Below, one piece after another: positions 518-64,000 of a DNA stretch of 64,000 nucleotides. The DNA is from Cyclina sinensis (Eukaryota; Mollusca; Bivalvia; Venerida; Veneridae), in contig JAAONU010000013.1 of NCBI GenBank assembly GCA_012932295.1, forward strand, positions 5,440,603 to 5,504,602, in the 5' to 3' direction. A program made the translations under genes and the position numbers. The notes beneath the pieces were generated by a model. It searched no databases. It saw only the letters and a program-made list of their open reading frames with translations, and had not been told where the DNA came from. Within the stretch, counting starts at the first letter, position 1, and each line of letters opens with the position of its first letter.

Positions 518-2146
518 AACAAGAGGGCCAAAATGGCCCTGGATCGCTCACCTGGGTACTTTGGCTGTAGATTTGCTGTTAAGCAGTATTTCGTTTTTTT
601 AATTGAAAACATGTAAGTGCCTACAAACCAAATATGTAAAATATCGGTCAATAAATAAAGGCTCTATGACAGAAAGGAGAAATATCGATTATAAGCTATG
701 GTGACCTTGACCCAGTGACCTCAAACCCTACCCATGGGTAGACATCCATGCAAGGAACCTATATACTGAATATCAAAGATATTGGTCTATAAATGAAGGC
801 TCTATGAGGTACAGTAGATAAATCTATTTTTAGCCTCCGTGACCTTTAACCTAATCTAATAATTTCAAAAAGCTTGATAAAGCTTGCTTCATGCCAAATT
901 TTAAAACTCTAGGCCTTGTGGTTTCATACAAGAAGATTTTTAAAGATTTTCTTCTATATTGCTATTTAAAACTTGTGACCCCTACCGCAGGGCCGATAGT
1001 GACCCCAGGGACATTTTTCAAACAAACTAGGTAGGGGTCCATGAGACAATGCTGCATACCAAATATCTAAGCTGTAGGCATTGAGGTTTCCAATTAGAAG
1101 ATTTTTAAAGATTGCCTTTTTTACATATAAAGGGCCCCCAGGGCGGGGCCAATTTTGACCCCAGGGCCAACATATATACAATACTGGTAAAGGTTCTCTA
1201 CACAATACTCCACACCAAATATCTAAGGTCTAGTCCTATTAGTTTGGAAGAAAAATGATTTTTCATGTTTTTCCTATATAACTATATGTAAACCAAGAGA
1301 ACTCTGGGGCGTGGCCAATTTTGACCCAGGGGACATTATTTGAACAAACTTTGAAGACATCCACTAGACAATGCTGCATACCAAATATCTAAGCTGTAGG
1401 CATTGAGGTTTCCAGTTAGAAGATTTTTAAAGATTCCCTATTACATATTAAGGGCCCCCAGGGCGGGGCCAATTTTGACCCAAGGGCCAACATATAAACA
1501 ATACTGGTAAAGGTTCTCAACACAATACTCCACACCAAATATCTAAGGTCTAGTCCTATTAGTTTGGAAGAAAAATGATTTTTCATGTTTTTCCTATATA
1601 ACTAAATGTAAACCAAGAGAACCCTGGGGCGTGGCCAATTTTGACCCAGGGGACATAATTTGAACAAACTTGGTAGACATCCACTAGACAATGCTACAAA
1701 CCAAATATCTAAGCTGTTGGCATCGTGGTTTCTGAGAAGAAGATTTTTAAAGATTTCCTATATAGGCCTATGTAAAATCAATCGACCCCCAGGGTGGGGC
1801 CAAATTTGACCCCAGGGGCATAATTTGACCAAACTTGATAGAGGTCCACTAGACAATGCTACATACCACATTTTAAGGCTCAGGGCCTTGTGGTTTCAGA
1901 CAAAAAAGATTTTCAAAGTTTTTCCTTTAAGTTGCCATAGCAACCAGAGTTCTTGATGGAATTGAATTCTTTGAATAACTTTGGTAGAGCTTCATGCAAG
2001 GAACATCTCAGGCAAGTTTCATTAAATTTGGCCCAGAGGTTTCAGAGGAGATGTCGTTTGAATGAAATTGTTGACGGATGACGGACGCCGGACAAAGACC
2101 GGTCACAATAGCCCACCATGAGCCAAAGGCTCAGGTGAATTAAAAA
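518..2146 (-). mobile_element. Family A Helentron-like (HINE) element
   Basis: The low-coordinate terminus starts AACAAGAGGGCCAAAATGG, which forms a hairpin with the following CCCT, and then carries the subterminal motif CGCTCACCTG. The core consists of diverged ~160-bp monomers arranged as ~318-bp dimers, each with a CCCCAGGGCGGGGCC-like box. The high end has a GACGGATGACGGACG tract, a hairpin TGAGCC-aaa-GGCTCA (2119-2133) and CAGGTGAATTAAAAA. Strand is given in Helentron sense, meaning the hairpin-bearing low-coordinate end is treated as the 3' end; this is inferred from the coding composite at 13080-15090. No protein is encoded. Confidence 0.75.
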
Positions 2147-3078
2147 GAAAGTCTTTTCTATCAATCCTGAATCAAGAGCATTTTTTTCTTATTTGCCACC
2201 ACATAAACTGTCATGTGGAATATGGAATAAAAACATTATTCATATTGATATCATTACGCCAATCTTCATTTGTTCCTATAGACATTTACAGCTTAACCAC
2301 TTTGCTCCCCATTTATCAAGTATCATATCCCTCTCTAAGTTACTTCTGTTTATTCATCACAATTTGATCCAGATATTTTGGTTGTTCAGGCAAAACAAGT
2401 TATTTGTCTCTCCTACTACGGAGACATTTGATTCCCTTTTTTTACATAACAAAAAAGTATAACTTTACATTCATTTCAAAGTGTTATTTTCCATACAATG
2501 TTTTTATGTTCTTCCTGTGATGTCCATGTTGCATAAAGGGCAAAAATCATCATAAAGACTGGGACTGAGAGAAGAAAAAAACTGTGCAAGAACAGGTTAC
2601 ATGAATGGCAAATATAAATAACAGTGAAATTTAACTTTGATAGAAGAAAATCAAACACTGGCAAAATTAATTTGACAATTTCATGACGCTAAACAAAATC
2701 GTGTCTATTGACTGCCCGTGGCATATCACTTAATTGGTTTATTGTCGCACGCCGTGTATTCGTCTTGCAAACTGCTAAGATACCACACGACACCCCATTG
2801 TGTTTTAATTACCTTAATCCATTATGTTTATAGAGTCTATATAAGAATATCTTGCCCCATTGTAAATCAATTAGCAGTGTCAAACATGGCAATTATGGGG
2901 TACACGGTAACTTCCGCAAATAATCCTATAATAGTTTTAACGCAATACTAAAAGAATATCCAATCAAAATGTGAGTACTCAAACGATGTATCCAATCAAT
3001 GATTTTCTAAAACAACCATTATAATTTTAATGTGTCAAACAATCATTCTTTTCTAGAATTCCAAAGCATTCATATTAA
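2147..3078. other. AT-rich unassigned stretch
   Basis: No repeat unit, terminus or recognisable coding sequence is seen. The open frames at 2193-2462 and 2718-2951 have low-complexity translations with no domain and are probably chance. Confidence 0.4.
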
Positions 3079-3532
3079 AACAAGAGCCATGTTACACATG
3101 GTTAATCCCCCCGCCGGGAAGAAGCTACCTGAAGGTTGTACTTTCAAACACTCAATGTAATAATGTTTGAAGAAAATCCCACAAAAAATAGGCAAGGTAG
3201 AGTTACTGTTCTTGCAAACTGCACTTCCTACCAATGTGCTATGTCAGTGTATTAAGTTTGAAGAAAATCGCTCAAGCACTTTTTGAGTTATGCTTTGGAC
3301 AAAGTTTTTCAATTAAATCTGATAAAGGGGAATAATTCTAAAAGTAGGCAAGGTAGAGTTATTATTCTTACACACTGCACCTCCTCCAAATGTCCTCTTT
3401 CAGTATATGAAGTTTGAAGAAAATCACTCAAGTACTTTTGGAGTTATGATCCCGACAAAACTGGAATGGACGCACGCATGGACGGACAGAGACCATTTCT
3501 AATATCCCCTCCTCCTTTCGCGGGGATAATAA
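3079..3532 (-). mobile_element. Family B HINE-like element, short complete copy
   Basis: The low terminus has the hairpin CCATGT-tac-ACATGG followed by the subterminal motif TCCCCCCGCC. The core holds about two copies of the ~156-bp unit marked by GGCAAGGTAGAGTTA. The high end has a GCATGGACGGACAGAGACC tract and then CCCCTCCTCCTTTCGCGGGGATAATAAG, quoted here only to show the ATCCCC/GGGGAT stem; its G-run is the inverse of the low motif. The family is defined from this copy and from the array at 3590-4447. Confidence 0.7.
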
Positions 3533-3589
3533 GTTCAAGAATTCAAGAATTAGATAAACATGTATATGCTGGGATTTTTAAAATGTAAA

Positions 3590-4447
3590 CAAGTAAATCT
3601 GATAAAGGGGAATAACTCTAAAAAATAGGCAAGGTAGAGTTATTGGACATGCACACTGCACTACCTACCAATGTGCTCTGTCAGTGTATGAAATTTGAAT
3701 AAAATCCCTCAAGTAGTTTTGGAGTTATGCTCCAGACAAAATTTATTAAGTAATTCTGATAAAGGGGAATAACTCTAAAAATAGGCAAGGTAGAGTTATT
3801 GGACTTGCACACTGCACTACCTAACAATGTGCTCTGTCAGTGTATGAAATTTGAATAAAATCCCTCAAGTAGTTTTAGAGTTATGCTCTGGACAAAATTT
3901 ATCAAGTAATTCTGATAAAGGGGAATAACTCTAAAAAAAGGCAAGGTAGAGTTATTGGACTTGCACACTGCACTACCTACCAATGTGCTCTGTCAGTGTA
4001 CTGAGTTTGAATAAAATCCCTCAAGTAGTTTTGGAGTTATGCTCCGGACAAAATTTATCAAGTAATTCTGATAAAAAGGAATAACTCTAAAAAAAGGCAA
4101 GGTAGAGTTATTGGACTTGCACACTGCACTACCTACCAATGTGCTCTGTCAGTGTATGAAGTTTGAATAAAATCCCTCTAGCAGTTTTGGAGTTATGCTC
4201 CGGACAAAATTTATCAAGTAAATTTGATAAAGCGGAATAACTCTAAAAAAAGGCAAGGTAGAGTTATTGGACTTGCACACTGCACTACCTACCAATGTGC
4301 TCTGTCAGTGTATGAAGTTTGAATAAAATCCCTCAAGTAGTTTTGGAGTTATGCTCCGGACAAAGATTGTTTCGGACGGACGCACAGACTCACGGACGGA
4401 CGAAGGGCATTCCTAATATCCCCTCAGCCTTTGGCGGGGGGATAAAA
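3590..4447 (-). repeat. Family B tandem array (156-bp unit) with high-end terminus
   Basis: Five units begin with GATAAAGGGGAATAACT or close variants at 3601, 3758, 3914, 4070 and 4226, so the period is 156-157 bp. Each contains GGCAAGGTAGAGTTATTGGA and a TTTGGAGTTATGCTCCGGAC block. The array ends with a GGACGGACGCACAGACTCACGGACGG-type tract (4374-4400) and the terminus GGCGGGGGGATAAAAA. The hairpin-bearing low terminus is missing, so this copy is truncated, or is the continuation of 3079-3532 after an internal interruption. Confidence 0.75.
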
Positions 4448-5619: not shown

Positions 5620-8600
5620 GTCCCTACCAGAAAGGGCATTGTCACACTAAATAGAACAAATTCAAATACTGACAAAAAGTTAGCTGAAATCAATAGTTTG
5701 TTTTAATGATAGATGAAGGTATGTTTTATACAACAGATAATCAAAAGATCACATGCCTATTAAGTGGCGGTTATGTTATAAATAAAATATTCACATGTAA
5801 TACAAATAAATACCTCAATTTTTCAAGACAAAGAACAGCCACATAAATGCATCTTGCTGTATGATCTGTAACACTTGACTAAAGTTGTATTGGTTCTACG
5901 CAAGTTCAAAAGTAATTGGAAGAAAAACACTCAAGAGAATAAACAATTTGCTATATTTTTTAAAGTAAAAAGGGGCACAATTTTGTCAATATAAGGGAAA
6001 GAGTTATGAAACATATTGTGTAAACTAATAATAACACCAATAAAGTTTGAATAAAGTCTCCATCAAATGCATCAATAGGTTCCAGGAATATTCAGGGAAA
6101 TGTAGATTTTTGGAATATTTTCAGAGTGAAGAAGGGGGATAACTTTGTGAAATCAGTCGTAAAATGTTGTGAAATGTGAAATGTGTAACAAGTTTAAAAT
6201 CTATAGAGCTTCAAAAGTATATCATCATTTTTGTAATATATCAAGACTATATGCTGCCATAGCAATCTAATTTCTAAATAAAGGAAAAGAAAAATAATTT
6301 GCATAATCTTCATACTGCCATTTATCCATGTTTCAAGTTTCATAAAAATATTCCAAGAACTTTTTGAATTATCACAGGATCCAGTTTTTGCTAACTAAGA
6401 CAGACTGAAAGAGATGGGAATGTATTGTCTAAACTAATAATAACACCAATAAAGTTTGTATAAAATCTCAATCAAATGCATCAATAGGTTCCAGAAATAT
6501 TCAAGGAAATGATGTTTAATGTGAAAAAGAGGGATAACTTTGTGAAATCAAAGGTCAGAGTTATGGGACATGACATGTGAACTGGTCTTCAGAGTATCAA
6601 AACATGTAACAAGTTTAAACAAGAGGGCCATGATGGCCCTGAATCGCTCACCTGATAGACCATGAAACGATATTGTAGACATAATGAGGAGAGAATTGGT
6701 GAAAGAAGGGCATGTGTCCACACTTGCTGATTGGTGAAGTTTTAACTTTACATGAACTGTTTTAATAATTTCCAGTTTACCTCATTTCGTCTAGATGATA
6801 AATACATGGAAAATGTTAACATTTCAAAGTCATTAGACTTTCGATACATTTTTTTTTTCTTTGTAAGTTAACATGAAACTATTGTATGAAGTACAAATTG
6901 AAATATGGATATCTGAAACAGGTGTAATGTTTTCATTTTGGCTGAAGGTAGTTTCCTTCAGAAATGTACAGTCTAGAAGTGACTTTTGTGTTAGGGTATA
7001 TGCTATTTTGAGACAGTATTTAAGTTACATAATGGTATGCAGTTAACCTGTGTTGGTAAATTCTGTACCAGTACAGAATTTGAGAGCACGTTATGACACA
7101 CAAGATAGGTGATCCACAGACCATGGACTGTACGTACTGAACTCAGCAGTTGGGAAGACCGAAGCAAACTTTGCAGACTAAGATCAGATGGCTATATAAA
7201 CTATATATAAAATGAATTGACTATGGGGCGGGGTCAATTTCACCCCGGGGATCATGATTTGAGCAAACTTGGTTAAGGTCTACTAGGTCATGCTACATGC
7301 AAAATTTCTAAGCTCTAGGCTTTCTGGTTCTGGAGTAGAAGATTTTTTGAAGTTTTTCCTATATAAACTCTATATAAAATCAACTGACCCCCAGGCGGGG
7401 TCAATTTGACCCCGAGGATCATGATTTGAGCAAACTTGGTAGAAGTCTACTAGTTAATGCTACATGCAAAATATCTAAGCTCCAGGCCTGCAGTTCTGGA
7501 GAAGAAGATTTTTAAAGTTTTTCCTATATAAACTATATATAAAATGAATTGACTATGGGGCGGGGTCAATTTGACCCCGGGGATCATGATTTAAGCAAAC
7601 TTGGTAAAGGTCTACTAGGTAATGCTACATGCAAAATATCTAAGCTCCAGGCTTTGTGGTTCTGGAGAAGAAGATTTTTGAAGTTTTTCCTATATAAACT
7701 CTATATAAAATCAATTGACCCCCGGGCGGGGTCAACTTGACCCCGGGGATCATGATTTGAGCAAACTTGGTAGAAGTCTACTAGGTAATGCTACATGCAA
7801 AATATCTAAGCTCCAGGCTTTGTGGTTCTGGAGAAGAAGATTTTTGAAGTTTTTCCTATATAAACTCTATATAAAATCAATTGACCCCCGGGGCGGGGTT
7901 AATCTGACCCCGGGGATCATGATTTGAGCAAACTTGGTTAAGGTCTACTTGGTTATGCTACATGCAAAATATCTAAGCTCTAGCCTTTTCCTATATAAAT
8001 TCTAAGTAAAATCTATTTACCCCCGGGGCTGAACCAGTTTGACCCCGGAAGTCATGATTTGAGCAAACTTGACAGAGGTCCCCTAGATGATGCTTCATAC
8101 CAAATATGAAAGCTCTGGGCCTTGTTATTTCAGACAAGAAGATTTTTGAAATTTCCATTTTAAAAACACCTTTTAGGGCCTCACAGCCATATTGTGCATT
8201 GGACCGGAACCATTTGAGCAAACTTGGTAAAGGGACATCTAAGGACCATTAGTATGAAGTTATTTTAAAATTGGGCCAGGGGTTTAGGAGGAGATGTCAT
8301 TTAAAGAAAATGTTGACGACGGACGACGGACGGACGACGGACGCCGGACACAAGGGTATCCTAATAGCTCACTCTGTCACTGCGTGACAGGTGAGCTAAA
8401 AATTGATATCTATAGAGCTTCAAAAGTATATCACCATTTTTGCAATATTTCAAGTCTATTTTTTGTCATAGCAATCGAATTTCTCAAAATAAGAACAAAA
8501 TAAAATGATGTGCATAATCTCCATATTGCCATCTATCCATGTTTCAAGTTTCATGAAAATACTGCATGTACTTTTTGAATTATTGCAGAATCCAGTTTTT

Positions 8601-8672: not shown

Positions 8673-8859
8673 AAAGACCATCTTGTTTCAAACAAGTATA
8701 AAATGGCCACTTCACTAGTTTTGTAAGCAAAATACAAAGACTTAGCTTAAAATCTGACTTCATAAATAAATATTGAACTTGTACTACTAAATATAAGGAT
8801 TTCTGTACCTCTTGTCATCTGGTTGAAAACAATCTAAGAACTATCTAGAACTGCCACTG
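8673..8859. other. Short unassigned spacer
   Basis: Nothing recognisable between element J and element D. Confidence 0.4.
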
Positions 8860-9175
8860 TCATGGCGTGAATACCCCCGCATAGTGCTTTGTCAGAATCA
8901 ACAGGGGTCATTTAGAGGTCATGGACAACCTCCCTGCCAAATCTGAGGGTAGCAAGCCAGTACATTGCTTAGTTATGTATTCTAGATGTTTTTTAGTGGC
9001 AAAGATCAAAGTAACCATTACCTTTGACCTACTACCTCAAAACTGAAACTGCCATGTGGGCCAAAGGATTATTAAGTTATTGGGCGGACAAGGAAAATCT
9101 GACAGACAGATGGACAGACGGACAAGTTGATTCCATTATACCCCCCTTACAACTTCGTTGTGTGGGGGTTAAACA
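8860..9175 (-). mobile_element. Family D HINE-like element, short
   Basis: The low end has CCACTGTCATGG followed by AATACCCCCGCATAG. The high end has a GACAGACGGACAAG tract, then ATACCCCCC...GTGTGGGGGTTAAAC, so the C-run and G-run form both a terminal stem and an inverted copy of the low motif. One or two core units (CCTTTGACCTACTACCTC) lie between. Confidence 0.55.
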
Positions 9176-9912
9176 AATTTTCTTTTTATCACATGTTTTT
9201 TAATGGATTTAAGTCATTTTTACTGATTTATGCCACGTAACTGGGAGGTCAAGTTTTTGGTCATGACTTGAGTGAAAGCCACTTTAACCATGACCTTTGA
9301 CCTAGTGACCTCAAAATCAGTTGGGGTCATGTTCTAGTCATGACCAACCTCCATACCAAATATGAAGACTGAGGGTCAAAGGATTCTTCAATTATTGGAC
9401 AGACAAGCTTTTTTTAGTCAAAGCTCCTGTGACCATGACCTTTGACCCAGTGACCTCAAAATAAATAGGGGTCATCTACTGGTCATGACCAACCTCCAGA
9501 CCAAATATGAAGACTGTGGGTCAAAGGATTCTTAAGTTATTGGGCTGACAAGCTTTTGTAGTCAATGCCCATGACCTTGACCTTTGACCCAGTGACTTCA
9601 AAATCAGTAGGGGTCATGTTCTAGTCATGACCAAACTCCTTACCAAATATGAAGACTGAGGGTCAAAGGATTCTTAAATTATTGGGCGGACAAGCTTTTT
9701 TTAGTCAAAGCTCCTGTGACCATGACCTTTGACCCAGTGACCTCAAAATCAATAGGGGTCATCTTATGGCCATGACCAATCTCCAGACCAAATATGAAGA
9801 CTGTGGGTCAAAGGATTCTTAAGTTATTGGGCGGACATGGAAAAACCAACGGACGGCCGGACAAGCTGATTCCAGTATACCCCCCACAACTTCGTTGTAC
9901 GGGGGTATAAAT
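9176..9912 (-). repeat. Family D tandem array (~144-bp unit) with high-end terminus
   Basis: CCAAATATGAAGACTG occurs at 9356, 9501, 9643 and 9788, giving periods of 142-145 bp. Each unit has TGACCTTTGACCYAGTGACC and GGGTCAAAGGATTCTTAA. The array ends with GACGGCCGGACAAGC and ACCCCCCACAACTTCGTTGT followed by ACGGGGGTATAAA, the same terminus as at 9175. It stops 37 bp from the donor of the plexin exon at 9949. Confidence 0.75.
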
Positions 9913-9948
9913 AAAGTCTAATGATGAGTATGACCCTAACAATCTTAC

Positions 9949-10928: not shown

Positions 10929-13077
10929 AACAAGAGGGCCATGATGGCCCTGGATCGCTCACCTGAGTACTTTGGCTGTAGGTTTGCTGTTAAGCAGTAT
11001 TTCATTTTTTATTTGAAAATATGTAAGTGCCTACAAACCAAATATGTAAAATTTCAGTCAATAAATAAAGGCTCTATGATAGAAAGTAGAAATATCTATT
11101 ATAAGCTATGGTGACCTTGACCCAGTGACCTCAAACCCCAACCATGGGTAAAGGTCCATGCAAGGAACCTCTATATTGAATATCAAAGATGTTGGTCTAT
11201 AAATGAAGGCTCTATGAGGTACAGTAGATAAATCTACTTTTAGCGTCCGTGACCTTTAACCTAATCCAATAATTTGAAAAAGCTTGATAAAGCTTGCTTC
11301 ATGCCAAATTTTAAAATTCTAGGTCTTGTGGTTTCAGACAAGAAGATTTTTAAAGATTTTCTTCTATATTGTTATTTAAAACTTGTGACACCTCGGGCGG
11401 GGCCAATAGTGACCCCAGGGATATTTTTCTAACAAACTTGGTAGAGGTCCACTAGACAATGCTACACACCAAATATCTAAGCTCTATAACTTACGGTTTC
11501 TGACAAGAAATTTTTTTTAGATTTTCTTATATAACTCTATGTAAAACTAGTGGCCCCTGGGGCGAGGCCATTTTTGACCCAGAGGCCAGGATTTGAACAA
11601 ACTTGGTAGAGGTCCACTAGACAATGCTACACACCAAATATCTAAGCTCTATAACTTACGGTTTCTGATAAGAAGATTGTTTTAAGATTTTCCAATATAA
11701 CTCTATGTAAAACAAGTGACCCCCGGGGCGGTGCCATTTTTGACTCAGAGGCCAGGATTTGAACAAACTTGGTAGAGGTCCACTAGACAATGCTACATAC
11801 CAAATATCTTAACTGTAGGCCTTCTTGTTTTTGACAAGAAGGTTTTTTGTTTTTCCTATATATCTCTATGTAAAACAAGTGACCCCGGGGCGGGGCCATT
11901 TTTGACCCAGAGGACAGGATTTGAACAAACTTGGTAGAGGTCCACTAGACAATGCTACACACAAAATATCTAAGCTCTATAACTTACGGTTTCTGACAAG
12001 AAGATTTTTTAGGATTTTCCTATATAACTCTATGTAAAACCAGTGGCCCCTGGGGTGGGGTCATTTTTGACCCAGAGGCCAGGATTTGAACAAACTTGGT
12101 AGAGGTTCACTAGACAATGCTACACACCAAATATCTAAGCTCTATAATTTACGGTTTCTGACAAGAAGATTTTTTAAGATTTCCCTATATAACTCTATGT
12201 AAAACTAGTGGCCCCTGGGGCGGGGCCATTTTTGACCCAGAGGAAAGGATTTGAACAAACTTGGTAGAGGTCCACTAGACAATGCTACACACCAAATATC
12301 TAAGCTCTACAACTTACGGTTTCTGACAAGAAGATTTTTTAAGATTTTCCTATATAACTCTATGTCAAACTAGTGGCCCCTGGGGCGGGGTCATTTTTGA
12401 CCCAGAGGACAGGATTTGAACAAACTTGGTAGAGGTCCACTAGACAATGCTACACACCAAATATCTTAGCTCTATAACTTACGGTTTCTGACAAGAAGAT
12501 TTTTTAAAGATTTTTCTATATAACTCTATGTAAAACAAGTGACCCCCGGGGCGGGCCATTTTTCACCCAGAGGCCATGATTTGAATAAACTTGGTAGAGG
12601 TCCACTAGACAATGCTACATACCAAATATCTTAACTCTAGGCCTTGTGGTTTCTGACAAGAAGATTTTCAATTCTTCCCTATATAACTCTATGTAAAATC
12701 AACTGACCCCTGGGGTGGGGTCAGTTTTGTCCCCAGGGACATAATTTGAACAAACTTGGTAGAGGTCCACTAGATGATGCTTCATACCAAATATCAAAGA
12801 TCCAGGCCTTGTGGTTTCGGAGAAGAAGATTTTTAAAGATCCAACTTATAAAATCTATTTTTAGCTCCAGTGAACCAGAAATGCAATGGACCAGAACCAT
12901 TTGAACAATCTTGGTAGAGCTTCATGCAAGGAACATCCCAGGCAAGTTTCATTAAATTTGCTCCATTGGTTTCAGAGGAGATGTCGTTTGAATGAAAAGT
13001 TGACGACGGACGGACAACGGACAAAGACCGATCAGAAAAGCTCACCCTAAGCACTTTGTGCTCAGGTGAGCTAACAA
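10929..13077 (-). mobile_element. Family A HINE with nine-unit 165-bp core
   Basis: The low end AACAAGAGGGCCATGATGG leads into CGCTCACCTGAG. The core units are marked by GTCCACTAGACAATGCTACA at 11447, 11612, 11778, 11940, 12106, 12270, 12435, 12600 and about 12764, so the period is 162-166 bp. Between the terminus and the core lie about 450 bp shared with the other copies at 518, 18783, 23413, 40375 and 59739. The high end has GACGACGGACGGACAACGGAC, the hairpin AGCAC-ttt-GTGCT (13050-13062) and CAGGTGAGCTAACAAAAA. Confidence 0.85.
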
Positions 13078-13381
13078 AAACATATGTCTCCCCCCAGCCA
13101 GTTGTTGCAGGCAGTATTGAGTCAGATGATTGTAAAATAAGGGGGATATTTTTGTCAAATGTACATGATGAACAAGAAACTCATACTCTGTCAAGAAAGG
13201 ATTGAGCAGAAACCTTGTTTCATATTGTACAAAATGGTTGTATTCATTCAGTCTAGTACCTGTAGCATGTTGGAATCATGTCGATGGCAGTGCTGTTACA
13301 TAGATGTGGGCAAAAAACAGTTACAAGGTGTCTTCTTCAAGCAGTCAAGTTTAATCTATTTCCATTGAAAAAGAGAAAAGT

Positions 13382-14515
13382 TAATCATGATAGCTGTAGT
13401 ATGTTGGAACTACTCCACAATGTACAACAGGAGCACTCTTAACATATGTATGATCAATCAGTTTGTTTTCTAGTTGTGGGGTTCGAAATTACTTGAAGAT
13501 TTCCAGTGAATGCTTGATTTAGTTGAACATTTGACAGTTCCAAAGTATTTACATTAAAATCTCCAGCAACTACTACAGTTGAAGTTGTTATGCCTCTCAA
13601 CAACTTTTGAAGGTCTTTGAGAAACTTATTGAGTGGAAAGTCTGGAGGCCGATACACACTAAAGATAGACAATGATGGTGCTTTGATATGAATACCAATA
13701 CATTCAATGTTGGAAGCTGATGTGTCGATGACTGTGTAATCATAATCTTGGTGTACAAGTATGGCAACTCCTCCTTTAACATTGCAGCAATGACTACCTC
13801 CAAGGTTAGGGCAATGTCGGACTTCTAAGTGATGAGTTTCTAGTACACTCTGTAAAGTCATATTACTTGTTGTCCATGTTTCCTGGAGAGCAATGACGTC
13901 AGATTGTCGAATGCAGCCACTGTTAATTATATCTTTGAAATGTGGTAAATAGCCTTCACAGTTTTGACTGGATATCAAGATTTTTGTTGGGTCAGTGATA
14001 TTTTCAAAAACATGTAGTTTTTTCCAGTTAGGTAGTGTTTCAGCGTGTGCCATGGTTTGAAGCTGTTTATTGATCTTTGGATCAGAATATATAACAGATG
14101 TGTCAAAGTCAGTGTCAAGAAGGTACAGACCATTTCCAGATGTAACCCTTGAGAGTGCCACATAGGCCATAACTGCTTTAAATATGCCTTTTAATGAAAC
14201 TGTAGCTTGCTTTGTTGTTAAGCCTTGAGTTTTGCGGATGGTAACTGCCCATGCCAACACAAAAGGGAACTGGTGTCGTGTGACTTGATATGGTGATTTC
14301 GAAACAACTTCTGTTTGCTGGGTGATTTAGGTTGAGTTTTAGTTAACATTTGGTGGAGGTGTAGTTTTTGATCTGCAAGCTGAACCTATTTTCTCTTGGT
14401 CAAATAAAACACAGATTGCAGCTGGTAAGCCTAGAGGCATCTGGCCTTTAATGATTGCAGTTACTGTGCCAATTTGTCCATTTGTGAGTCCATCTGCGAC
14501 ATCAATATTTTAATG
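13382..14515 (-). pseudogene. Helentron Rep/helicase-endonuclease, C-terminal remnant
   Basis: The minus strand encodes the end of a PIF1-like helicase fused to an exonuclease-endonuclease-phosphatase (EEP) domain, a fusion characteristic of Helentrons (Helitron2). The helicase part starts NIDVADGLTNGQIGTVTA (about 14514), and motifs TIRKTQGLT and YVALSRVTSGNGLYLLD follow. The endonuclease part has VIALQETWT, SVYRPPDFP and VVVAGDFNVN. After PTTRKQTD a one-base shift is needed to continue into LIDHTYVKSAP...VPTYYSYHD; the usual S-D-H catalytic end reads S-Y-H here. Stops at about 14325-14345 and the shift near 13455 make it a pseudogene. The Rep nuclease and the helicase N-terminal half are gone, replaced by the 157-bp array, which abuts at 14515. 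Confidence 0.82.
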
Positions 14516-15040: not shown

Positions 15041-15090
15041 AACCAGGGGAAAAACAATCTGTCTCCCCCATTTTTGGGGGGAGACATAAT

Positions 15091-48813: not shown

Positions 48814-48828
48814 GTAGGTCAGAAGGTC

Positions 48829-53580: not shown

Positions 53581-55014
53581 ACAAGAGGGCCAATGGCCCT
53601 TAAGTGCTCACCTGGGTTCAAAGATGAAAGAAATTTGCCATAGATTTAAAACAATTAAGTAGGTCAGTAGGTCAAAAATATAGGTCATGCTATGACATTT
53701 TTGAAATCAGTACAAAAAACTGTACACATGGTCCAAATTTCATTGCCATAGCTCCAAAAACAAAAGGTATGTCAGTAGGTCAAAAAAATAGGTAATGCAA
53801 TGACATTTTTTAAATCTAAACGAAAAACTGTGCACATGGTCCAAATTTCATTGCTGTAGCTAAAAACCAAAAAAGTAGGTCAAAATATAGGTCAAGGAAT
53901 AATGATTTTGAAATCATCTTGAAAACTGTACAAATGGTCCAAATTTTATTGCCAAAACGAAAGACCAAAAACTTTGGGCGGGGGAGGGTGGGGGCGGGGG
54001 GGGGGGGGGAAGTGACCCCCAGGGGAGGGGGGATGACCCCATTCTCACAGTGCATAGTACCAAATATCTAAGCTCCAGGCCTTGCAGTTTTTGACAAGAA
54101 GATTTTTAAAGTTTTTTCACTATATAACTCTATGTAAAACATGTGACCCCTGGGGCAGGGCCAGTTTTGACCCAGGGGCCATGATTTTAAAATCTTGGTA
54201 GAGGTCTTCTAGACAATGCTCAACACCAAATATCTAAGCTTCATGCCTTGTTGTTTCTAACAAAAAGATTTTTAAAGATTTTCTTATATAACTCTATGTA
54301 AAACATGTGACCCCTGGGGCAGGGCCAGTTTTTATCCAGGAGCCATGATTTGAACAAACTTGGTAAAGGTCCACTGGATAATGCTGCACACCAAATATCT
54401 TAACTCTAGGCCTTGTGGTTTCTTAGAAGAAGATTTTTTAAATGTTTTTCCTATATAACTCTATGTAAAACATGTGACTTCTGGGGCGGGGCCATTTTTG
54501 ACCCAGGAGCCATGATTTGAACAAACTTGGTAAAGGTCCACAGGACATTGATGCACACCAAATATCTTAACTCTAGGCCTTGTAGTTTCTGACAAGAATA
54601 TTTTTAAAGTTTTCCTATATAAGTCTTTGCAAAAACCAGAGACCACTGGGGTGGGGCCAATTTTGACCCTAGGGGAATAATTTGAACAACTTTTGTAGAG
54701 GCCTACTAGAGGATGCTACATACCAAATATCTAAGCTTTAGGGCTTGTGGTTTCAGACAAGATTATTTTCAAAGTTTTTCCTTTCAGTTGCCATAGCAAC
54801 CAGAGTTTTCTTGATGGAATTGGTTTCTTTGAACAACTTTGGAAGAGCTTCATGCAAGGAACATCCCATGCAAGTTTCATTGAATTAAGCCCAGTGGTTT
54901 TAGAGGAGATGTTGTTTGAATGAAATTGTTGACGCCTCATGATGCACACCACACGACGCACATTGGGGTATGACAAAAGCTCGCTCTGGCACTTTGTGCC
55001 AGGTGAGCTAAAAA
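53581..55014 (-). mobile_element. Family A HINE nested in the L array
   Basis: The low end ACAAGAGGGCCAATGGCCCT (hairpin with a shorter loop) leads into GTGCTCACCTGG. Then come K units (53655-53960), a long G tract (53976-54035) and 165-bp core units. The high end has hairpin GGCAC-ttt-GTGCC and CAGGTGAGCTAAAAAG. The L array text GAATCAAAT...AAGTTATGACAATTTAAG continues across it. Confidence 0.8.
53976..54035. repeat. G-rich tract (potential G-quadruplex)
   Basis: Runs of three or more G separated by A, T or C, including one run of about fourteen G. Equivalent tracts lie at 26449-26471 and 28449-28495, each at the same position after AAAATGAGAAAAAA in family A elements (the G run at 53976 follows AACTTTGGGC). 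Confidence 0.8.
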
Positions 55015-55316
55015 GAGCAAGTTATGACAATTTAAGAAAGATTAAATCATTTGACCTTGACAATCAAGGTCATTTTAAGGTCAGGGTCATACCTGAATTA
55101 TTCAACATGTTGGTTTTGTCATAAATGTTGTTTTGTCCAAGTATGAATCAAATCCAACTACAAATAACAAAGTTATTGCCAATTTTAGCCAAGTTCAAAA
55201 ATCTAACCTTGAAGGCACAGGTCATTTATGAGTACAGGTCAAGTTCAGTCTAGTCTACTTTAAGGTCTTGTCCAAAAAGTTGTTGTGTCCATGTATGAAG
55301 ACAATCCATTAAGAAA
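55015..55316 (-). repeat. L tandem array, second part
   Basis: AAGTTATGACAATTTAAGAA, TTTTAAGGTCAGGGTCATAC and GTATGAATCAAATCC, collinear with 52871-53580. Confidence 0.7.
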
Positions 55317-55786
55317 TGTGTCTGTAAGACACAGATGCCCTCACTCAACCTAGCTACTCATACAGCTAGCATTATGGCAAAACTCAAAATACTGTCTCCA
55401 ACACTGCGACCAATGGATGAATATTATCCTTCACAATTCTGTATGCATAGATGGACATCCATGGAGTTTGCAGATAGTAAACAGGTTTTTTCTTGTCTAA
55501 TTTGTACTAATTTGTACTAAGTTCCAAAGTTATATGTTCTGTAAGTTAGGCTGTTTATAAAATGTCCATTGTCATCTAAATAGCAAACAATATTAAGCAA
55601 TTGTAATGTTGGATCAAAATTTCACCATTTCCATACTTAAATGTTGAATTCTGCTTAAGCTGGTGCTAATGGGCGTGGACGGTAACTTGCACTTTCCATT
55701 ACTGTCCATGAACATGCTCAATCAAACATAGTCTGCAATTTGACCATTGGAACAGCGATAAGCTCACTAAGAAGATGGAAATTTTT

Positions 55787-56062
55787 TTAGGAATCAAACT
55801 GTAGGGCAACAATGCTGTGGTCTGAGTAGTAGGTTGACAGGCAGGTTAATCTGGGTTGTAGAATATTAATCTGTATGTAGACAAGGTCAAATGTAGAACC
55901 ACCTCTGTGAGTTGGGAGCTGCAAACACTGGGAATAGTTATTCAATTTCTGTGACTGTCTTCTATAATTTGTAGAATTAAAAGCTAAGTTGAAATCTCCA
56001 AGCAGTAAATCTGGAGAAGTTTGGTCTGCAATATGTGTTAGATCATTAATAAAGTCTGTGGA
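55787..56062 (-). pseudogene. Helentron-type EEP endonuclease, C-terminal fragment
   Basis: An open minus-strand stretch of 91 codons ending at a stop: TDFINDLTHIADQ, then LLLGDFNLAFNS (catalytic GDFN), LQLPTHRGGSTFDLVYI and STYYSDHSIVALQFDS (catalytic S-D-H). This is the second half of an exonuclease-endonuclease-phosphatase domain. It begins abruptly where the tandem array starts (56063), so the N-terminal half is missing. It is less decayed than the copy at 13382-14515, whose S-D-H reads S-Y-H. A LINE endonuclease is the alternative, but the hairpin terminus and matching layout favour a Helentron. Confidence 0.72.
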
Positions 56063-56480
56063 AACCCCAGGTGCACAAAATTTACATGCTGATCAACATT
56101 CCTGTAAAGTTTCTTGACTGTAGGTGCAGCACTTTTGCAGATACAGGTGACACAAGTTGAAAATTGCAAATTTTTAGTATGAGGGGCCATAACTCTAACA
56201 ATACGGAATAAATCTATATAGGAAAACCCAGGTGCACAATTTTACATGCTGATCAACATTCCTGTAAAGTTTCTTGACTGTAGGTTCAGCGCTTTTGCAG
56301 TTACAGGCGACACAAGTTGAAAATTACTATTTTTGACTAAGTAAGGGGCCATAACTCTAACAGTTCCAAATAAATCTATATGGGAAACCCCAGGTGCACA
56401 ACTTCACATGCTGATCAACATTCCTGTAAAGTTTCTTGACTCTAGCTTCAGGGCTTTTGGAGCTCTAGGCGATACAAATT
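56063..56480 (-). repeat. ~162-bp tandem array
   Basis: CCCAGGTGCACAAYTTTACATGC-like text recurs at about 56067, 56228 and 56391, with TGATCAACATTCCTGTAAAG and GGGGCCATAACTCTAACA in each unit. Confidence 0.8.
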
Positions 56481-56500
56481 TTATGGGACGGGCAAGGGCA

Positions 56501-56786
56501 AATTTAAATGCTCCCCCCCGACCCCCCCCATAAAATTATTATCAATTTTAAAGTTTTCAGAGGGAACAGGAACAGCAAAAACACCATGACTGTAGCAATA
56601 AAAAGTCCAGCTAAAAATGCCAAAAGTAGAGCCTATACATATGTATTTCTTTTCTTTCTCCTTGCCAGGTAACACAAAGAACATTAAACAGTGTACACAT
56701 TTTAATAACTATTTATCAATCCAAACATCTAGTCTGCGATTTATTTCAAAAAGACTTTATTCAATGTGACAAAGATAACAGCTTAC
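56501..56786. other. Intron flank, unassigned
   Basis: Contains C runs near 56511-56530 and otherwise unique sequence leading to the exon donor. Confidence 0.45.
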
Positions 56787-57637: not shown

Positions 57638-59693
57638 AACAAGAAATGTTTGTAAAACATAAATGTCCCCCAGCAGCACCTAATTGCTTGTGGTTGGGCC
57701 AAGCTTTCTATAGTTATTGATCAGAAACCATTTTAAGGATCAAGGTCCCTGTGGCCTTAACCTTTGACCTAACGACCTAAAAATCAATAGGGGTCATCTA
57801 TTGATGATGACCAACCAGCATACCAAGTTTGGTGAATCTAGGTCAAAGCCTTCTGAAGTAATTGATCAGAAACAGTTTTTAGGTTGAAAGTCTCTGTGAC
57901 ATTGACCTTTGACCAAATGACCTCAAAATCAATAGGGGGTCATTTACTGTTGATGACCAACCAGCATACCAAGTTTGGTGAACCTAGGTCAAAGCATTCT
58001 CTAGTTTTTGATCAGAAACAGTTTTTAGGATGAAAGTCTCTGTGATCTTGACATTCGACCTAAAGACCCTAAAGTCAATAGGGTCATCTACTGGTGATGA
58101 CCAACCAGCATACCAAGTTTGGTGAACCTAGGTCAAAGCGTTCTCTAGTTATTAATCAGAAACCATTTTTGAGGTGGAAGTCTCTGTGATCATAACCTTT
58201 GACCTAATGATATTAAAGTCAAGGGGTCATCTACTGGTGATGACCAATCAGCATACCAAGTTTGGTAAACCTAGGTCAAAGCATTCCCTAGTTACTGACT
58301 GGAAACCGTTTTTAGGATGAAGGTCCCTGTGAGCTTGACCTTTGATCTAATGACCTCAAAAATTGATAGGGGTAATCTACTGGTGATGACCAACCAGCAC
58401 ACCAAGTTTGGTGAACCTAGGTCAAAGCGTTCTCTAGTTATTGATCGGAAACCATTTTTAGGATGGTCAGTCTCTATGATCTTGACCTTTGACTTAATAA
58501 CCTGGAAGTCAATAGGGATTATCTAGTGCTGATGATTAACCAGCATACCAAGTTTGGTGAACCTAGGTCAAAGCGTTCTCTAGTTATTGATCTGAAACCG
58601 TTTTTAGGATGAAGGTGCCTGTGATCTTGACCTTTGACCTAATGACCTCAAAATCAAAAGGGGTCATCTACTAGTGAAGACCAACCAGCATACCAAATTT
58701 GGTGAACCTAGGTCAAAGCGTTCTCTAGTTATTGATCAGAAACAGTTTTTAGGATGAAGGTCCCTGTGAGCTTGACCTTTGACGTTATGACCTCAAAATC
58801 AAAGGGGGTGATCTACTGGTGATGACCAACCAGCTAAACAAGTTTGGTGAACTTAGGTCAAAGCATTCTTTAGTTATTGATTGGAAACCGTTTTTAGGAT
58901 GAAAGTCCCTGTGAGCTTGACCTTTCACCTCAAAATCAATAGGGGTCATCTACTTGTGATGACCAACCAGAATACCAAGTTTGGTGAACCTAGGTCAAAG
59001 CGTTCTCTAGTTATTGATCGAAAACTGTTTTTAGGATGATAGTCTCTGTGATCTTGACCTTTGACCTAATGACCTCAAAGTCAATAGGGGTCATCTACTA
59101 TTGATGATCAACCAGCATACTAAGTTTGGTGAACCTAGGTCAAAGCGTTCTCTAGTTATTGATCGAAAACCGTTTATAGGATGGAAGGATCTGTGATCTT
59201 GACCTTTGACATAATGACCTCAAAATCAATAGGGGTCATTTACTGCTGACGATCAACCAGCATACCAAGTTTGGTGAACCTAGGTCAAAGCATTCTCTAG
59301 TTATTGATCGAAACCATTTTTTGGATGGAGGTGCCTGTGAGCTTGACCTTTGACCTAATGACCTCAAAATCAATATGGGTCATCTACTGCTGATGACCAA
59401 CCAGCACACCAAGATTGGTGAACCTAGGTCAAAGCGTTCTCTAGTTATTGATCGGAAACCGTTTTAAGAATGAAAGTCCCTGTGAGCTTGACCTTTGACC
59501 TAATGATCTCAAAATCAAAAGGGGTCATCTACTAGTGAAGACCAACCAGCATACCAAGTTTTGTGAACCTAGGTCAAAGTGTTCTCTAGTTATTGATCGG
59601 AAACGAAGTGTTTACCGACCCACCAACTGACGGACCGACAGACATTTGCAAAACTATATGCCCTCTCATCTTCGATGGGGGGCATAAAAATAG
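57638..59693 (-). mobile_element. Family F HINE-like element, complete, about 13 units
   Basis: The low end AACAAGAAATGTTTGTAAAA has hairpin ATGTTT-gta-AAACAT and then ATGTCCCCCAGC. The core is about thirteen ~146-bp units with ACCAACCAGCATACCAAGTT, GGTGAACCTAGGTCAAAGCG and TTATTGATCGGAAACCG. The high end has ACTGACGGACCGACAGAC and ATGGGGGGCATAAAAA. Units carry TGACCT direct repeats, several of them perfect DR1 spacing. Confidence 0.85.
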
Positions 59694-59738: not shown

Positions 59739-62700
59739 AACAAGAGGGCCATAATGGCCCTGGATCACTCACCTGAGTACTTTGACTGTAGGTTTGCTGC
59801 TAAGCAGTATTCCATTTTTTAATTGTAAGTGTCTACAAACCAAATATGTAAAATATCAGTCAATAAATAAAGGCTCTATGACAGAAAGTAGAAATATCTG
59901 TTATAAGCTATGGTGACCTTGACCTTGACCCAGTGACCTCAAACCCTACCCATGGGTAGACGTCCATGCAAGGAACCTATATACTGAATATCAAAGATAT
60001 TGGTCTATAAATGAAGCCTCTATGAGGTACAGTAGATAAATCTATTTTTAGCCTCCATGACCTTTAACCTAATCTAATAATTTCAAAAAGCTTAATAAAG
60101 CTTGCTTCATGCCAAATTTTAAAATTCAAGGCCTTGTGGTTTCAGACAAGAAGATCTTTATAGATTTTCTTCTATACTGCTATTTAAAACTTATGACCCC
60201 TCGGGCGGGGCCAACAGTGATCCCAGTGACATTTTTCAAACAAACTAGGTAGAGGTCCACTAGACAATGCTGCATACCAAATATCTAAGCTGTAGGCATT
60301 GAGGTTTCCAGTAAGAAGATTTTTAAAGATTGCCTTTTTTACTTATTAAGGACCCCCGGGGCGTGGGCCAATTTTGACCCCGGGGCCAACATATAAACAA
60401 TACTGGTAAAGGTTCTCAACACAATACTCCACACCAAATATCTAAGGTCTAGTCCTATTAGTTTCCGAGAAAAATGATTTTTCATGTTTTTCCTATATAA
60501 CTATATGTAAATCAATAGAACCCTGGGGTGTGGCCAATTTTGACCCAGGGGACATAATTTGAACAAATTTGATAGAGGTCCACTAGACAATGCTGCATAC
60601 CAAATATCTAAGCTGTATGCATTGAGGTTTCCAGTAAGAAGATTTTTAAAGATTGCCTTTTTTACATATTAAGGGCCCCCGGGGCGGGGCCAATTTTGAT
60701 CCCGGGGCCAACATATAAACAATACTGGTATATGTTCTCAACACAATACTCCACATTAAATATCTAAGGTCTAGACCTATTTGTTTTGGAAAAAATTGAT
60801 TTTCATGTTTCTCCTATATAAATCTATGTAAACCAAGGGAACCCTGGGGCGTGGCCAATTTTGACCCAAGGAACATAATTTGAACAAACTTGGTAGACAT
60901 CCACTAGACAATGCTACATACCAAATATCTAAGCTGTAGGCATTCAGGTTTCTAGTAAGAAGATTGATAAAAATTGCCTTTTTTACATATTAAGGTCCTG
61001 GAGAGGGGCCAATTTTGACCCCGGAGCCAAAATATAAACAATACTGGTAAAGGTTCTCTACACAATACTCCACACCAAATATATAAGGTCTAGTCCTATT
61101 AATTTCGCAGGAAAATGACTTTTCATGTTTTTCCTATATGTAAACCAAGAGAACCCTGGGGAGTGCCTAATTTTGAACCAGGGGACATAATTTGAACAAA
61201 CTTGGTAGACATCCTTTAGACAATCCTACAAACCAAATATCTAAGTTGTAGGCATTGAGGTTTCCAGTAAGAAGATTTTTAAAGATTTCCTTTTTTAAAT
61301 ATTATGGGCCCCCGGGGCGGGGCCAATTTTGATGCCGGGGCAACCATATAAACAATACTGGTAAAGGTTCTCTACACAATACTCCACACCAAATATCTAA
61401 GTTCTAGTCCTATTAGTTTCAGAGAAAAATGATTTTTCATGTTTTTCCTATATAACTATATGTAAACCAAGAGAACCCAGAGGCGTGGTCAATTTTGACC
61501 CAGGGGACATAATTTGAACAAACTTGGTAGACATCCACTAGAAAATTCTATATACCAAATATCTAAGCTGTAGGCATTAAAGTTTCCAGTAAGAAGATTT
61601 ATAAAGATTGCCGTTTTTACATATTAAGAGCCCCTGAGGAGGGGCCAATTTTGACCCTGGGGCCAACATATAAACAATACTGGTAAAGGTTCTCTACACA
61701 ATACTCCACACCAAATATCTAAGGTCTAGTCCTATGAGTTTCGGAGAAAAAATGATTTTTCATGCTTTTCCTATATGTAAACCAAGAGAACCCTGGGGCG
61801 TGGCTAATTTTGAACCAGGGGACATAATTTGAACAAACTTGGTAGACATCCTTTAGACAATGCTACATATCAAATATTTAAGCTGTAGGCATTGAGCTTT
61901 CCAGCAAGAACATTTTTAAAGATTTCCTTTTTTACATATTAAGGGCCCCCGGGGCGGGGCCAATTTTGAAGCCGGAGCCAACATATAAAAAATACTGGTA
62001 AAGGTTCTCTACACAATACTCCACACCAAATATCTAAGGTCTAGTCCTATTAGTTTCAGAGAAAAATGATTTTTCATGTTTTTCCTATATAACTATATGT
62101 AAACCAAGAGAACCCTGGGGCTTGGCCAATTTTGACCCAGGGGACATAATTTGAACAAACTTGGTAGACATCCACTAGACAATGCTACAAACCAAATATA
62201 TAAGCTGTAGGCATTGAGGTTTCCAGTAAGAAGATTTTTAAAGATTGCCTTTTTTACATATTAAGGGCCCCTGAGGAGGGGCTAATTTTGACCCCGGGGC
62301 CAACATATAAATAATACTGGTAAAGGTTCTCTACAAAATACTCCACACCAAATATCTAAGGTCTAGTCCTATGAGTTTCGGAGAAAAATGATTTTTCATG
62401 TTTTTCCTATATAACTATATGTAAACCAAGAGAACCCTGGGGCGTGGCTAATTTTGACCCAGGGGACATAATTTGAACAAACTTGATAGACATCTACTAG
62501 ACAATGCTACATACCAAATATCTAAGCTGTAGGCATTGAGGTTTCCAGTAAGAAGATTTTTAAAAATTGCCTTTTTTACATATAAAGGTCCTGGTGAGGG
62601 GCCAATTTTAACCCCGGAGCCAACATATAAACAATACTGGTAAAGATTCTCTACACAATACTCCACACCAAATATCTAAGGTCTAGTCCTATAAGTTTCG

Positions 62701-64000
62701 GAGAAAAATGATTTTTCATGTTTTTCCTAATATGTAAACCAAGAGAACCCTCAGGGGCGTGGCTAATTTTGAACCAGGGGACATAATTTGAACAAACCTG
62801 GTAGACATCCTTTAGACAATTCTACATATCAAATATCTAAGCTGTAGGCATTGAGGTTTCCAGTAAGAACATTTTTAAAGATTTCCTTTTTTACATACTA
62901 AAGGTCCCCGGGGCGGGGCCAATTTTGACGCCGGAGCCAACATATAAACAATACTGGTAAAGGTTCTCAACACAATACTCCACACCAAATATCTAAGGTC
63001 TAGTCCTATTAGTTTCAGAGAAAAATGATTTTTCATGTTTTTCCTATATAACTATATGTAAACCAAGAGAACCCTGGGGCATGGCAAATTTTGACCCAGG
63101 GGACATAATTTGAACAAACTTGGTAGACATCCTTTAGACCATGCTACACACCAAATATCTAAGCTGTAGACATTGAGGTTTCCAGAAAGATTTTTAAAGA
63201 TTGCCTTTCTTACATATTAAGGGCCCCTGAGGAGGGGCCAATTTTGACCCCGGGGCCAACATATAAACGATACTGGTAAAGGTTCTCAACACAATACTCC
63301 ACACCAAATATCTAAGGTCTAGTCCTATGAGTTTCGGAGAAAAATGATTTTTCATGTTTTTCTTATATAACTATATGTAAACCAAAAGAACCCTGTGGCG
63401 TGGCCAATTTTGACCCAGGGGACAAATTTGAATAAACTTGATAGACATCCACTAGACAATGCTACATACCAAATATCTAACTTGTAGGCATTGAGGTTTC
63501 CAGTAAGACGATTTTTAAAAATTGCCTTTTTTAAATATTAAGAGCCCCTGAGGAGGGGCCAATTTTGACCCCGGGGCCAACATATAAACAATACTGGTAA
63601 AGGTTCTCTACACAATACTCCACATCAAATATCTATGGTCTAGTCCTATGAGTTTCAGAGAAAAATCATTGTTCATGTTTTTCCTATATGTAAACCAAGA
63701 GAACCCTGTGGCTCGGCTAATTTTGAACCAGGGGACATAATTTGAACAAACTTGGTAGACATCCTTTAGACAATGCTACATATCAAATATCTAAGCTGTG
63801 GGCATTGAGGTTTCCAGTAAGAACATTTTTAAAGATTTCCTTTTTTACATATTAAGGGCCCCCAGGGCGGGGCCAATTTTGACCCAGAGGCCAACATATA
63901 AACAATACTGGTAAAGGTTCTCTACACAATACTCCACACCGAATATCTAAGGTCTAGTCCTACAAGTTTCAGAGAAAAATGATTTTTCATGTTTTTCTTA
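59739..64000 (-). mobile_element. Family A HINE with long dimeric array, running off the window
   Basis: The low end AACAAGAGGGCCATAATGG is followed by CACTCACCTGAG and the usual 450-bp lead. From about 60180 the core is ~318-bp dimers, each with one GGGCCCCCGGGGCGGGGCC-type or variant box at about 60352, 60672, 60990, 61305, 61626, 61941, 62264, 62585, 62905, 63218, 63541 and 63857. The other half of the dimer has GAGAACCCTGGGGCGTGGCC. The high terminus is not reached. Confidence 0.85.

What the first reader, a model, noticed from the sequence alone, without database searches (positions are those of the whole stretch)
518..64000. At least ten HINE-like families share one architecture but have unrelated, internally matched termini
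Seen: families differ completely in terminal sequence, yet in complete copies the low-end motif is the inverse of the high-end motif: A CGCTCACCTGAG / CTCAGGTGAGC, B TCCCCCCGCC / GGCGGGGGGA, C ATGTCTCCCCCC / GGGGGGAGACAT, E 15 of 15 bp, F ATGCCCCCA / GGGGGGCAT, G ATGCCCCCAC / GTGGGGCAT, J split 16 bp. The hairpin lies outside the low motif, a tandem core follows, then GACGGACGG, then TAAAA. Known: Helentrons and HINEs have subterminal inverted repeats and a 3' hairpin. Inference: one mobilisation system has diversified through paired changes of both ends, as if each family needs end-matching for transposition. This is the best candidate for an under-described system here.
Basis: partly seen in the sequence, partly recalled or inferred. 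Interest (0 to 1): 0.85.

Follow-up and report, generated by a model that had tools for sequence, protein, structure and literature searches.

The report
Nested jumping genes with matched ends
This stretch of animal DNA is crowded with short copies of a known kind of jumping gene (HINEs, the protein-less relatives of Helentrons) whose two ends usually match within a family; two of the copies still hold scraps of what looks like the Helentron enzyme, which hints at what moved them.

Summary
The window holds a nest of HINEs (non-autonomous Helentrons), read 5' to 3' on the minus strand. By hand I listed 28 5' ends and 23 3' ends, all in one orientation (both strands checked). Eight end types have both ends (A, B, C, E, F, G, K, L; letters mine); H, X and J show a 5' end only. 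In a 7-family matrix the diagonal holds 67 of 84 identities, reached by 1 of 5040 permutations. Pairing by position alone joins same-class ends in 18 of 22 cases, shuffled mean 7.4. Several partners were picked partly because they match, so these tests flatter the case. K fails, G matches over 7 bp, 4 of 22 positional pairs are mixed, and the C-rich ends are not unrelated. The architecture is published: Cg_HINE of oyster (PMC7492417), Helentrons (PMC4067079). The extra result: elements C (helicase plus endonuclease) and K (endonuclease) hold broken Helentron-type coding sequence beside a tandem array, and differ enough (22 of 77 shared columns) to favour several Helentron lineages over one system. 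The genome-wide test could not be run.

The parts
519..2140 (-). HINE of end family A
   Evidence: ends read; array 1044-1761
3080..4443 (-). HINE of family B; a second, inner B-like 5' end lies at 3530
   Evidence: 11 of 12 end identities
6619..8398 (-). HINE of family A
   Evidence: paralogous site 6184-6264 with only 14 nt on the left side, not recovered under the stricter rule
8838..9908 (-). HINE of family E; inner E-like 5' end at 9171
10930..13073 (-). HINE of family A, inserted at the 3' palindrome of element C (inference)
   Evidence: 7-bp stem across the joined flanks (one fold, no control)
13074..15087 (-). element C: HINE with broken Helentron coding sequence
   Evidence: ends 12 of 12 identical
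13384..14509 (-). broken Helentron reading frame in C: PIF1-type helicase C-terminus fused to an endonuclease/exonuclease/phosphatase domain; three open pieces in two frames
   Evidence: PF03372 3e-07; relatives; tblastn; tree; frames
14508..15010 (-). 157-bp tandem array of C, starting where Helentron homology stops
   Evidence: tblastn hits of P0002-P0005 end at 14509
16455..17432 (-). HINE of family G (ends match over 7 bp)
18784..23377 (-). HINE of family A, holding a Tc5/pogo-like DDE transposase frame (20839-22200)
24712..26428 (-). HINE of family A
24899..25351 (-). copy of 17169-17624 (5' half of G plus 192 bp of its flank) inside the A element
   Evidence: 93.4% over 457 columns, flank part 96.4% over 192
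35363..36904 (-). HINE of family L, inserted in a LINE endonuclease frame
   Evidence: end motif identical over 16 bases; LINE frames left and right
40376..44496 (-). HINE of family A, outer
42418..44413 (-). HINE of family A nested in the former
   Evidence: joined flanks resemble other A elements
44730..45688 (-). mixed pair: A-type 3' end, C-like (J) 5' end; chimera or nested elements that lost ends
47084..48807 (-). HINE of family A in a 107-bp repeat
48830..50567 (-). HINE of family A in a 107-bp repeat
53581..55010 (-). HINE of family A in a 151-bp repeat
55313..56531 (-). element K: HINE with endonuclease remains of Helentron type; 5' subterminal repeat degenerate
55787..56092 (-). endonuclease C-terminal remains in K
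   Evidence: PF14529 0.0016, under its curated cut-off; 28% over 90 columns with P0001, z 14.5; z 3.7 with the window's LINE piece
56060..56477 (-). 162-bp tandem array of K, starting 7 bp from the end of the P0001 match at 56053
57638..59685 (-). HINE of family F
59740..64000 (-). HINE of family A, cut by the window end

Best explanation
Shown: a cluster of HINEs, non-autonomous Helentrons, many nested in one another, in one orientation. A typical copy has, 5' to 3' on the minus strand: T-run, subterminal repeat with an adjacent inverted arm (usually a hairpin), GTCC-like microsatellite, tandem array, unique stretch, a second copy of the subterminal repeat in inverted sense, a palindrome, and a terminus near YTCTWG. 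Two copies (C, K) hold broken coding sequence of Helentron type within 7 bp of the array. Inferred: several old Helentron lineages, each with a Rep that recognises its own subterminal repeat, gave rise to deletion derivatives. The Rep nicks at the 5' end, peels one strand, stops at the 3' palindrome, and the single strand or circle is inserted in T-runs without target duplication, the fused endonuclease probably nicking the target. Arrays grew or were swapped next to the 5' end while the matched end pair was kept, because both ends must be recognised by the same protein or pair with each other.
For: End matrix and permutation; positional pairing 18 of 22, 0 of 20000 shuffles as high; partner 3' end the unique best place in 8 of 17 pairs; 5' hairpin with at most 10 of 200 shuffles as stable in 21 of 26 5' ends; GTC-rich stretch at 22 of 28 5' ends against 9.7% of 4000 random positions (but one search used such stretches to find many of these ends); YTCTWG at 9 of the 10 3' ends printed (picked by eye, no control); helicase-endonuclease fusion in C, which groups with P0001-P0005 at 99/91 in a tree of few columns; coding remains next to the array in both C and K; L splits a LINE frame; cores shuffle against ends.
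Against: K's 5' end neither matches its 3' end nor folds; G matches over 7 bp; 4 of 22 positional pairs are mixed, and 6 5' ends and 1 3' end stay unpaired. Partners of E, F, G, L and others were chosen partly for their match, so searches are not blind. Junction-spanning paralogues were found for 5 of 21 joined flanks but also for 21 of 200 random joins, so that test is weak. The Rep domain was not sought with a query of its own: the tblastn queries held none, and the 15 of 16 stop-to-stop frames of 110 aa or more scanned against Pfam showed no Rep; shorter frames were not scanned apart from the pieces. K's remains could be LINE-like (z 3.7). Nothing was tested genome-wide.
Confidence: 0.78

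Rival explanations
1. One reading: a single mobilisation system whose end pairs diversified by matched changes under selection for end-to-end pairing.
For: Ends match within families while cores are exchanged; microsatellite, palindrome position and a YTCTWG-like 3' terminus are shared by families with different repeats.
Against: C and K agree at 22 of 77 shared protein columns while C and P0001, from another source, agree at 35, so more than one protein lineage seems involved; positions 10-13 of some A 5' repeats change without the 3' end following.
Confidence: 0.22
2. Self-templated copying: the 5' repeat is complementary both to its neighbouring arm and to the 3' repeat, so mispaired single strands during transposition are repaired and changes spread between the copies without selection for matching.
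For: The 5' repeat, its inverted arm and the 3' repeat are three versions of one sequence in most families.
Against: In the A elements with 5' repeat GCTCACCTGTCAC the arm follows the 5' repeat but the 3' repeat does not beyond 9 bp; no direct evidence of repair.
Confidence: 0.2
3. The matching of the C-rich families is mostly low-complexity similarity and common descent, with partners picked because they match, not a specific pairing.
For: Off-diagonal identity among B, C, E, F, G averages 7.3 of 12; F and G are nearly interchangeable; G has 25 places as good as its 3' end.
Against: The true pairing is still the best of 120 permutations in that set; B, C, E, F have a unique best place; A and L are not C-rich.
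Confidence: 0.12

Closest known systems
Cg_HINE elements of Crassostrea gigas (PMC7492417)
   Same: 11 elements, each with a consistent pair of flanks around tandem arrays of mostly 140-180 bp units; 5' subTIR, inverted arm, microsatellite (GTCY, GTCC or GTCK in several), 3' subTIR, palindrome; T-rich insertion sites; families with related flanks and unrelated cores.
   Different: There the authors could not relate any of 10 autonomous elements to the HINEs; here two array-bearing elements hold Helentron-type coding remains. They report both orientations genome-wide; this window has one. No sequence comparison with Cg_HINE was made here.
Helentrons and HINEs of mite, mosquito and Drosophila (PMC4067079)
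   Same: 12-15 bp subTIRs, 3' stem-loop, T-run insertion, Rep/helicase with fused endonuclease, families defined by at least 11 bp identical subTIRs; DINE-1 also has the inverted arm and microsatellite.
   Different: Several pairs here have fewer than 11 identical bases in a row (G 7, E 9, some A 9).
Pearl elements of bivalves (known to me from passages in PMC7492417; original not seen)
   Same: short arrays of about 160-bp repeats inside elements later re-classed as non-autonomous Helentrons
   Different: sequence comparison not done here
FoHeli Helitron2 elements of Fusarium (PMC5148889, passages only)
   Same: asymmetric terminal inverted repeats that are part of hairpins in one group; [quoted passage not shown]
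   Different: fungal elements with their own transposase; an endonuclease is not mentioned for FoHeli in the passages seen

Membership tests
HINE (non-autonomous Helentron) | subterminal inverted repeats at both ends | tested here: met
   clear in A, B, C, E, F, L, weak in G, not met in K
HINE (non-autonomous Helentron) | palindrome near the 3' end, outside the subTIR | tested here: met
   read by eye for A, B, E, F, G, K, L; in C only across the joined flanks of an inserted A element
HINE (non-autonomous Helentron) | insertion in T-rich sequence without target duplication | tested here: inconclusive
   T-runs at most 5' ends; a few paralogous sites without duplication, but random joins also hit at 21 of 200
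HINE (non-autonomous Helentron) | shares ends with an autonomous Helentron of the same genome | tested here: inconclusive
   C and K hold coding remains between their own ends; no intact partner was found in the window and the genome search did not complete
Helentron (element C) | PIF1-type helicase fused to endonuclease | tested here: met
   endonuclease by Pfam; helicase part by likeness to PIF1 proteins such as P0004, not by a Pfam match of its own
Helentron (element C) | Rep (HUH) domain with Helentron motif 2 | not tested
   homology starts inside the helicase at 14509, but no query held a Rep domain; C is filed as a remnant
canonical Helitron | 5' TC and 3' CTRR, no inverted repeats | tested here: not met
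   5' ends begin AGCTC, ATG, ATA, ATC or AACC and inverted repeats are present; the 3' ends of E and G do contain CTAG

The most novel reading that the evidence does not exclude
The subterminal repeat works as an address: each Helentron lineage reads its own, the 5' repeat can pair either with its neighbouring arm or with the 3' repeat, and this switch decides between start and finish of strand peeling. Elements may change cargo arrays freely as long as the three address copies agree. C and K are caught in the act of turning from coding Helentrons into array-bearing HINEs, and the one-way orientation in the host gene reflects how the single strand is inserted.
Probability: 0.15. Interest if true: 0.65.

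Novelty: new member of a known kind. Interest (0 to 1): 0.4.

Why it matters
HINEs carry satellite-like arrays through oyster and other bivalve genomes, and the 2020 oyster study left open which enzymes move them (PMC7492417). Elements C and K give end sequences joined to Helentron-type protein remains, so partners can be sought by end and by protein together. If different end families follow different Rep lineages, the question of what Helentron subterminal repeats do becomes testable by swapping ends in a laboratory transposition assay.

Tried and rejected
A pattern scan of viral contigs for the A 3' end found 0 stretches (its note says that records of the window's own genome may be left out). 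Paralogous empty sites: one search joined 25 trial pairs, joined 21 with better boundaries; 5 of 21 had a junction-spanning hit against 21 of 200 random joins. Two 5' ends on one element (44413 and 44496) rejected in favour of nesting; for B (3530, 4443) and E (9171, 9908) nesting with a lost 3' end and a composite cannot be told apart. A LINE origin of K's endonuclease is disfavoured, not excluded: z 14.5 against P0001, 3.7 against the window's LINE piece. T-run asymmetry as the cause of the single orientation: A-runs of 4 or more outside elements are 299 of 520, too mild alone, but nested insertions are not independent.

Selection and rows left out: ends were located by eye. The matrix holds 7 of 8 two-ended families (L was found later), one chosen copy per end. 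One search, an earlier automatic comparison, had some ends badly cut (for example 48787) and was replaced. One search folded 26 of 28 5' ends (30318, which lost its hairpin, and 25157 left out). One search took 17 pairs. Class labels were given by hand, where the C 3' end was moved to 10925 because an A element interrupts it. Confidence in the best explanation was lowered from 0.82 to 0.78 on re-reading, for this selection and the short C-K overlap.
Full report
What was checked. The quoted motif pairs were sought in the window and the tandem arrays mapped. Most are real. Two quoted positions are not ends of the kind stated: 28490 is a run of G, and 30463 is the inner arm of a 5' hairpin. Family letters below are mine.

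Anatomy. Read on the minus strand, the elements begin at the high coordinate. One search prints 22 3' ends and 27 5' ends. A typical 5' end has a T-run, a subterminal repeat, a short loop, an inverted arm, then a GTCC-like stretch. A typical 3' end has a second copy of the repeat in inverted sense, a palindrome, and a terminus that reads YTCTWG in 9 of the 10 3' ends printed (K reads TTCTTA; the motif was picked by eye and has no control; the degenerate 3' end near 10501 reads ATCTTG). A GTC-rich stretch lies inside 22 of 28 5' ends against 9.7% of 4000 random positions, but one search used such stretches to find many of these ends. Of 26 5' ends folded as DNA, 21 have at most 10 of 200 mononucleotide shuffles as stable; B4441, a15475, G, H and K do not.

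Are the ends matched? In a matrix of seven families with both ends, identities over 12 outer-end-anchored bases were 11, 11, 12, 10, 10, 8 and 5 for A, B, C, E, F, G and K, off-diagonal mean 5.7; only the true pairing among 5040 permutations reaches the diagonal sum. Without A and K the contrast is 10.2 against 7.3, best of 120. Family L, found afterwards at 35388 and 36904, matches over the 16 bases compared. Pairing the 23 3' ends and 28 5' ends by position alone, as brackets, gives 22 pairs of which 18 join the same class; shuffled labels give 7.4 on average, at most 14 in 20000. The four mixed pairs are 18176-27425, 24712-25157 (25157 lies in a captured piece of G, see below), 44730-45688 and 50766-52863. 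These tests are not blind: several partners were chosen partly because they match. A control for that is: of 17 pairs, the 3' end is the unique best place for 8 (B, C, E, F, L, A6619, A10930, A18784), one of two or three for 5, one of 13 for A47084, of 25 for G and of 680 for K; A519 was misregistered by two bases. In an automatic local comparison of all listed ends neither G's nor K's own 3' end was the clear best. In A elements with 5' repeat GCTCACCTGTCAC the hairpin pairs 13 of the first 14 bases, but the 3' end matches over 9 bases at most.

Ends and cores. Consensus units of 26 arrays were compared, with 400 shuffled pairs as control, highest 28. Twelve arrays next to A-type 5' or 3' ends share one core of about 165 bp (or double that); A42418 and A47084/48830 share an unrelated 145-bp core; the element opening at 44730 with an A-type 3' end has a core like those of E and F. 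B and H share a core (scores 79 and 81) although their ends differ. L is like F50770 (51) and barely like C, F57638 and 44730 (30-32); C, K and B are at the edge (29-33). So cores are exchanged between end families, as reported for group 2 of the oyster elements (PMC7492417).

Nesting. A42418-44413 lies in A40376-44496. A10930-13073 may lie in the 3' palindrome of C: the joined flanks form a 7-bp stem, suggestive only. L lies in a LINE: the left frame runs ...NPKINK up to the element and the right frame resumes KYTW. A24712 carries a copy, 93.4% over 457 columns, of 17169-17624, including 192 bp of sequence flanking element G at 96.4%; capture by the A element is the simplest reading, though both could come from a third copy. 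Junction-spanning paralogues were found for 5 of 21 joined flanks (A24712, A42418, A47084, A48830, A53581) and for 21 of 200 random joins, so that test by itself proves little.

Helentron remains. The 290-aa frame 13454-14326 on the minus strand matches Exo_endo_phos (3e-07). Its relatives P0001 and P0002 cover 100% and 81% of it at 42% and 37% identity; both have the endonuclease by Pfam, P0002 under the cut-off. The helicase part rests on likeness to PIF1 proteins such as P0004 (67% over 31% of the query). Two further open pieces, 14339-14509 (same frame, beyond a stop) and 13381-13488 (another frame), continue the homology, so the gene is broken by at least one stop and one frame change and cut off at 14509. 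The tandem array begins at 14508, and hits of P0002-P0005 end at 14509. In a tree of the helicase stretch with all 62 proteins, C groups with P0001-P0005 at 99/91 (66 columns, and the program warns of few columns and long branches). Element K holds an endonuclease C-terminal piece (55787-56092): PF14529 0.0016, under the curated cut-off, but 28% over 90 columns with P0001, z 14.5; the match ends at 56053 and the array begins at 56060. Searching the window with P0001-P0005, C and K gave no other row below E 0.071 outside C and K. Over 77 columns shared by the C pieces, K and P0001, C agrees with P0001 at 35, K with P0001 at 23 and C with K at 22; direct C-K alignments reach z 1.9. Ten further frames of 110 aa or more gave no Pfam match (with, 15 of 16 such frames scanned). 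A Rep domain was not sought with a query of its own.

Orientation and setting. Both strands were searched for ACAAGAG (17 plus, 1 minus, the latter without the module), for GGAC-type stretches (1 minus, not HINE-like) and for end modules. Minus hits were 3 for the A 3' module, at palindromes of listed ends; 9 for the A 5' module with up to 3 substitutions (5 at the 3' repeats of listed A elements; 42296, 30145 and 12872 inside A elements, 15284 a loose match; shuffled mean 1.15); 1 for the ATG class, at the X hairpin; none for the others. So no end in the opposite orientation was recognised. TIG-domain pieces on the minus strand suggest that the window lies in a gene read in the same direction. 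T-run asymmetry outside elements is mild, 299 of 520. Treating about ten root insertions as independent gives p about 0.002-0.004; that number is my estimate. The oyster study reports both orientations genome-wide, so this may be local.

Literature. PMC7492417 (Results, and part 1 of 2 of the Discussion; passages) describes the same architecture in 11 elements and states that autonomous partners could not be related to the HINEs. PMC4067079 (abstract, two of three parts of Results, Discussion, passages) defines Helentrons and HINEs and classes families by the subTIR. PMC5148889 passages report inverted repeats within hairpins and joined ends in related fungal elements. Passages of PMC11136912, PMC12628747, PMC8268682 and PMC10294476 and search listings (20 of 1,127 listed; 20 of 28; 20 of 39; 10 of 10) showed me no bivalve array-bearing HINE linked to Helentron coding sequence; that is a statement about what I saw there only. 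That the host is a bivalve is inferred from likeness to those descriptions; no call names the organism.

Verdict. What is worth keeping is the link between end types and Helentron-type protein remains, and the three-copy relation of 5' repeat, arm and 3' repeat.

Noticed in passing
1-64000: All 28 5' ends and 23 3' ends listed point one way, the sense of what looks like a TIG-domain gene on the minus strand.
   Followed up: partly
24899-25351 and 17169-17624: An A element holds a copy of half of element G with 192 bp of G's flank, in the same orientation.
   Followed up: partly
20839-22200: 453-aa DDE transposase frame (DDE_1, HTH_Tnp_Tc5) inside the A element 18784-23377.
   Followed up: partly
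33070-39487: LINE-like frames on the plus strand (reverse transcriptase at 38007-38810, weak endonuclease at 35065-35430), split by HINE L; three other plus-strand frames of this stretch had no Pfam match.
   Followed up: partly
15805-15958: Self-complementary stretch of about 154 bp, 88.6% matched to its own reverse complement.
   Followed up: no
30274-30319: A-type 5' end that keeps its microsatellite but seems to have lost its hairpin between two AGCT words.
   Followed up: no
53000-53572 and 55011-55317: 151-bp repeat array interrupted by the A element 53581-55010.
   Followed up: partly
5340-5600, 9808-10311, 30560-30900, 56783-56998: Likely exons on the minus strand; TIG domain at 5340-5600 (0.0003) and 56783-56998 (2.2e-10); no Pfam match for the other two.
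   Followed up: partly
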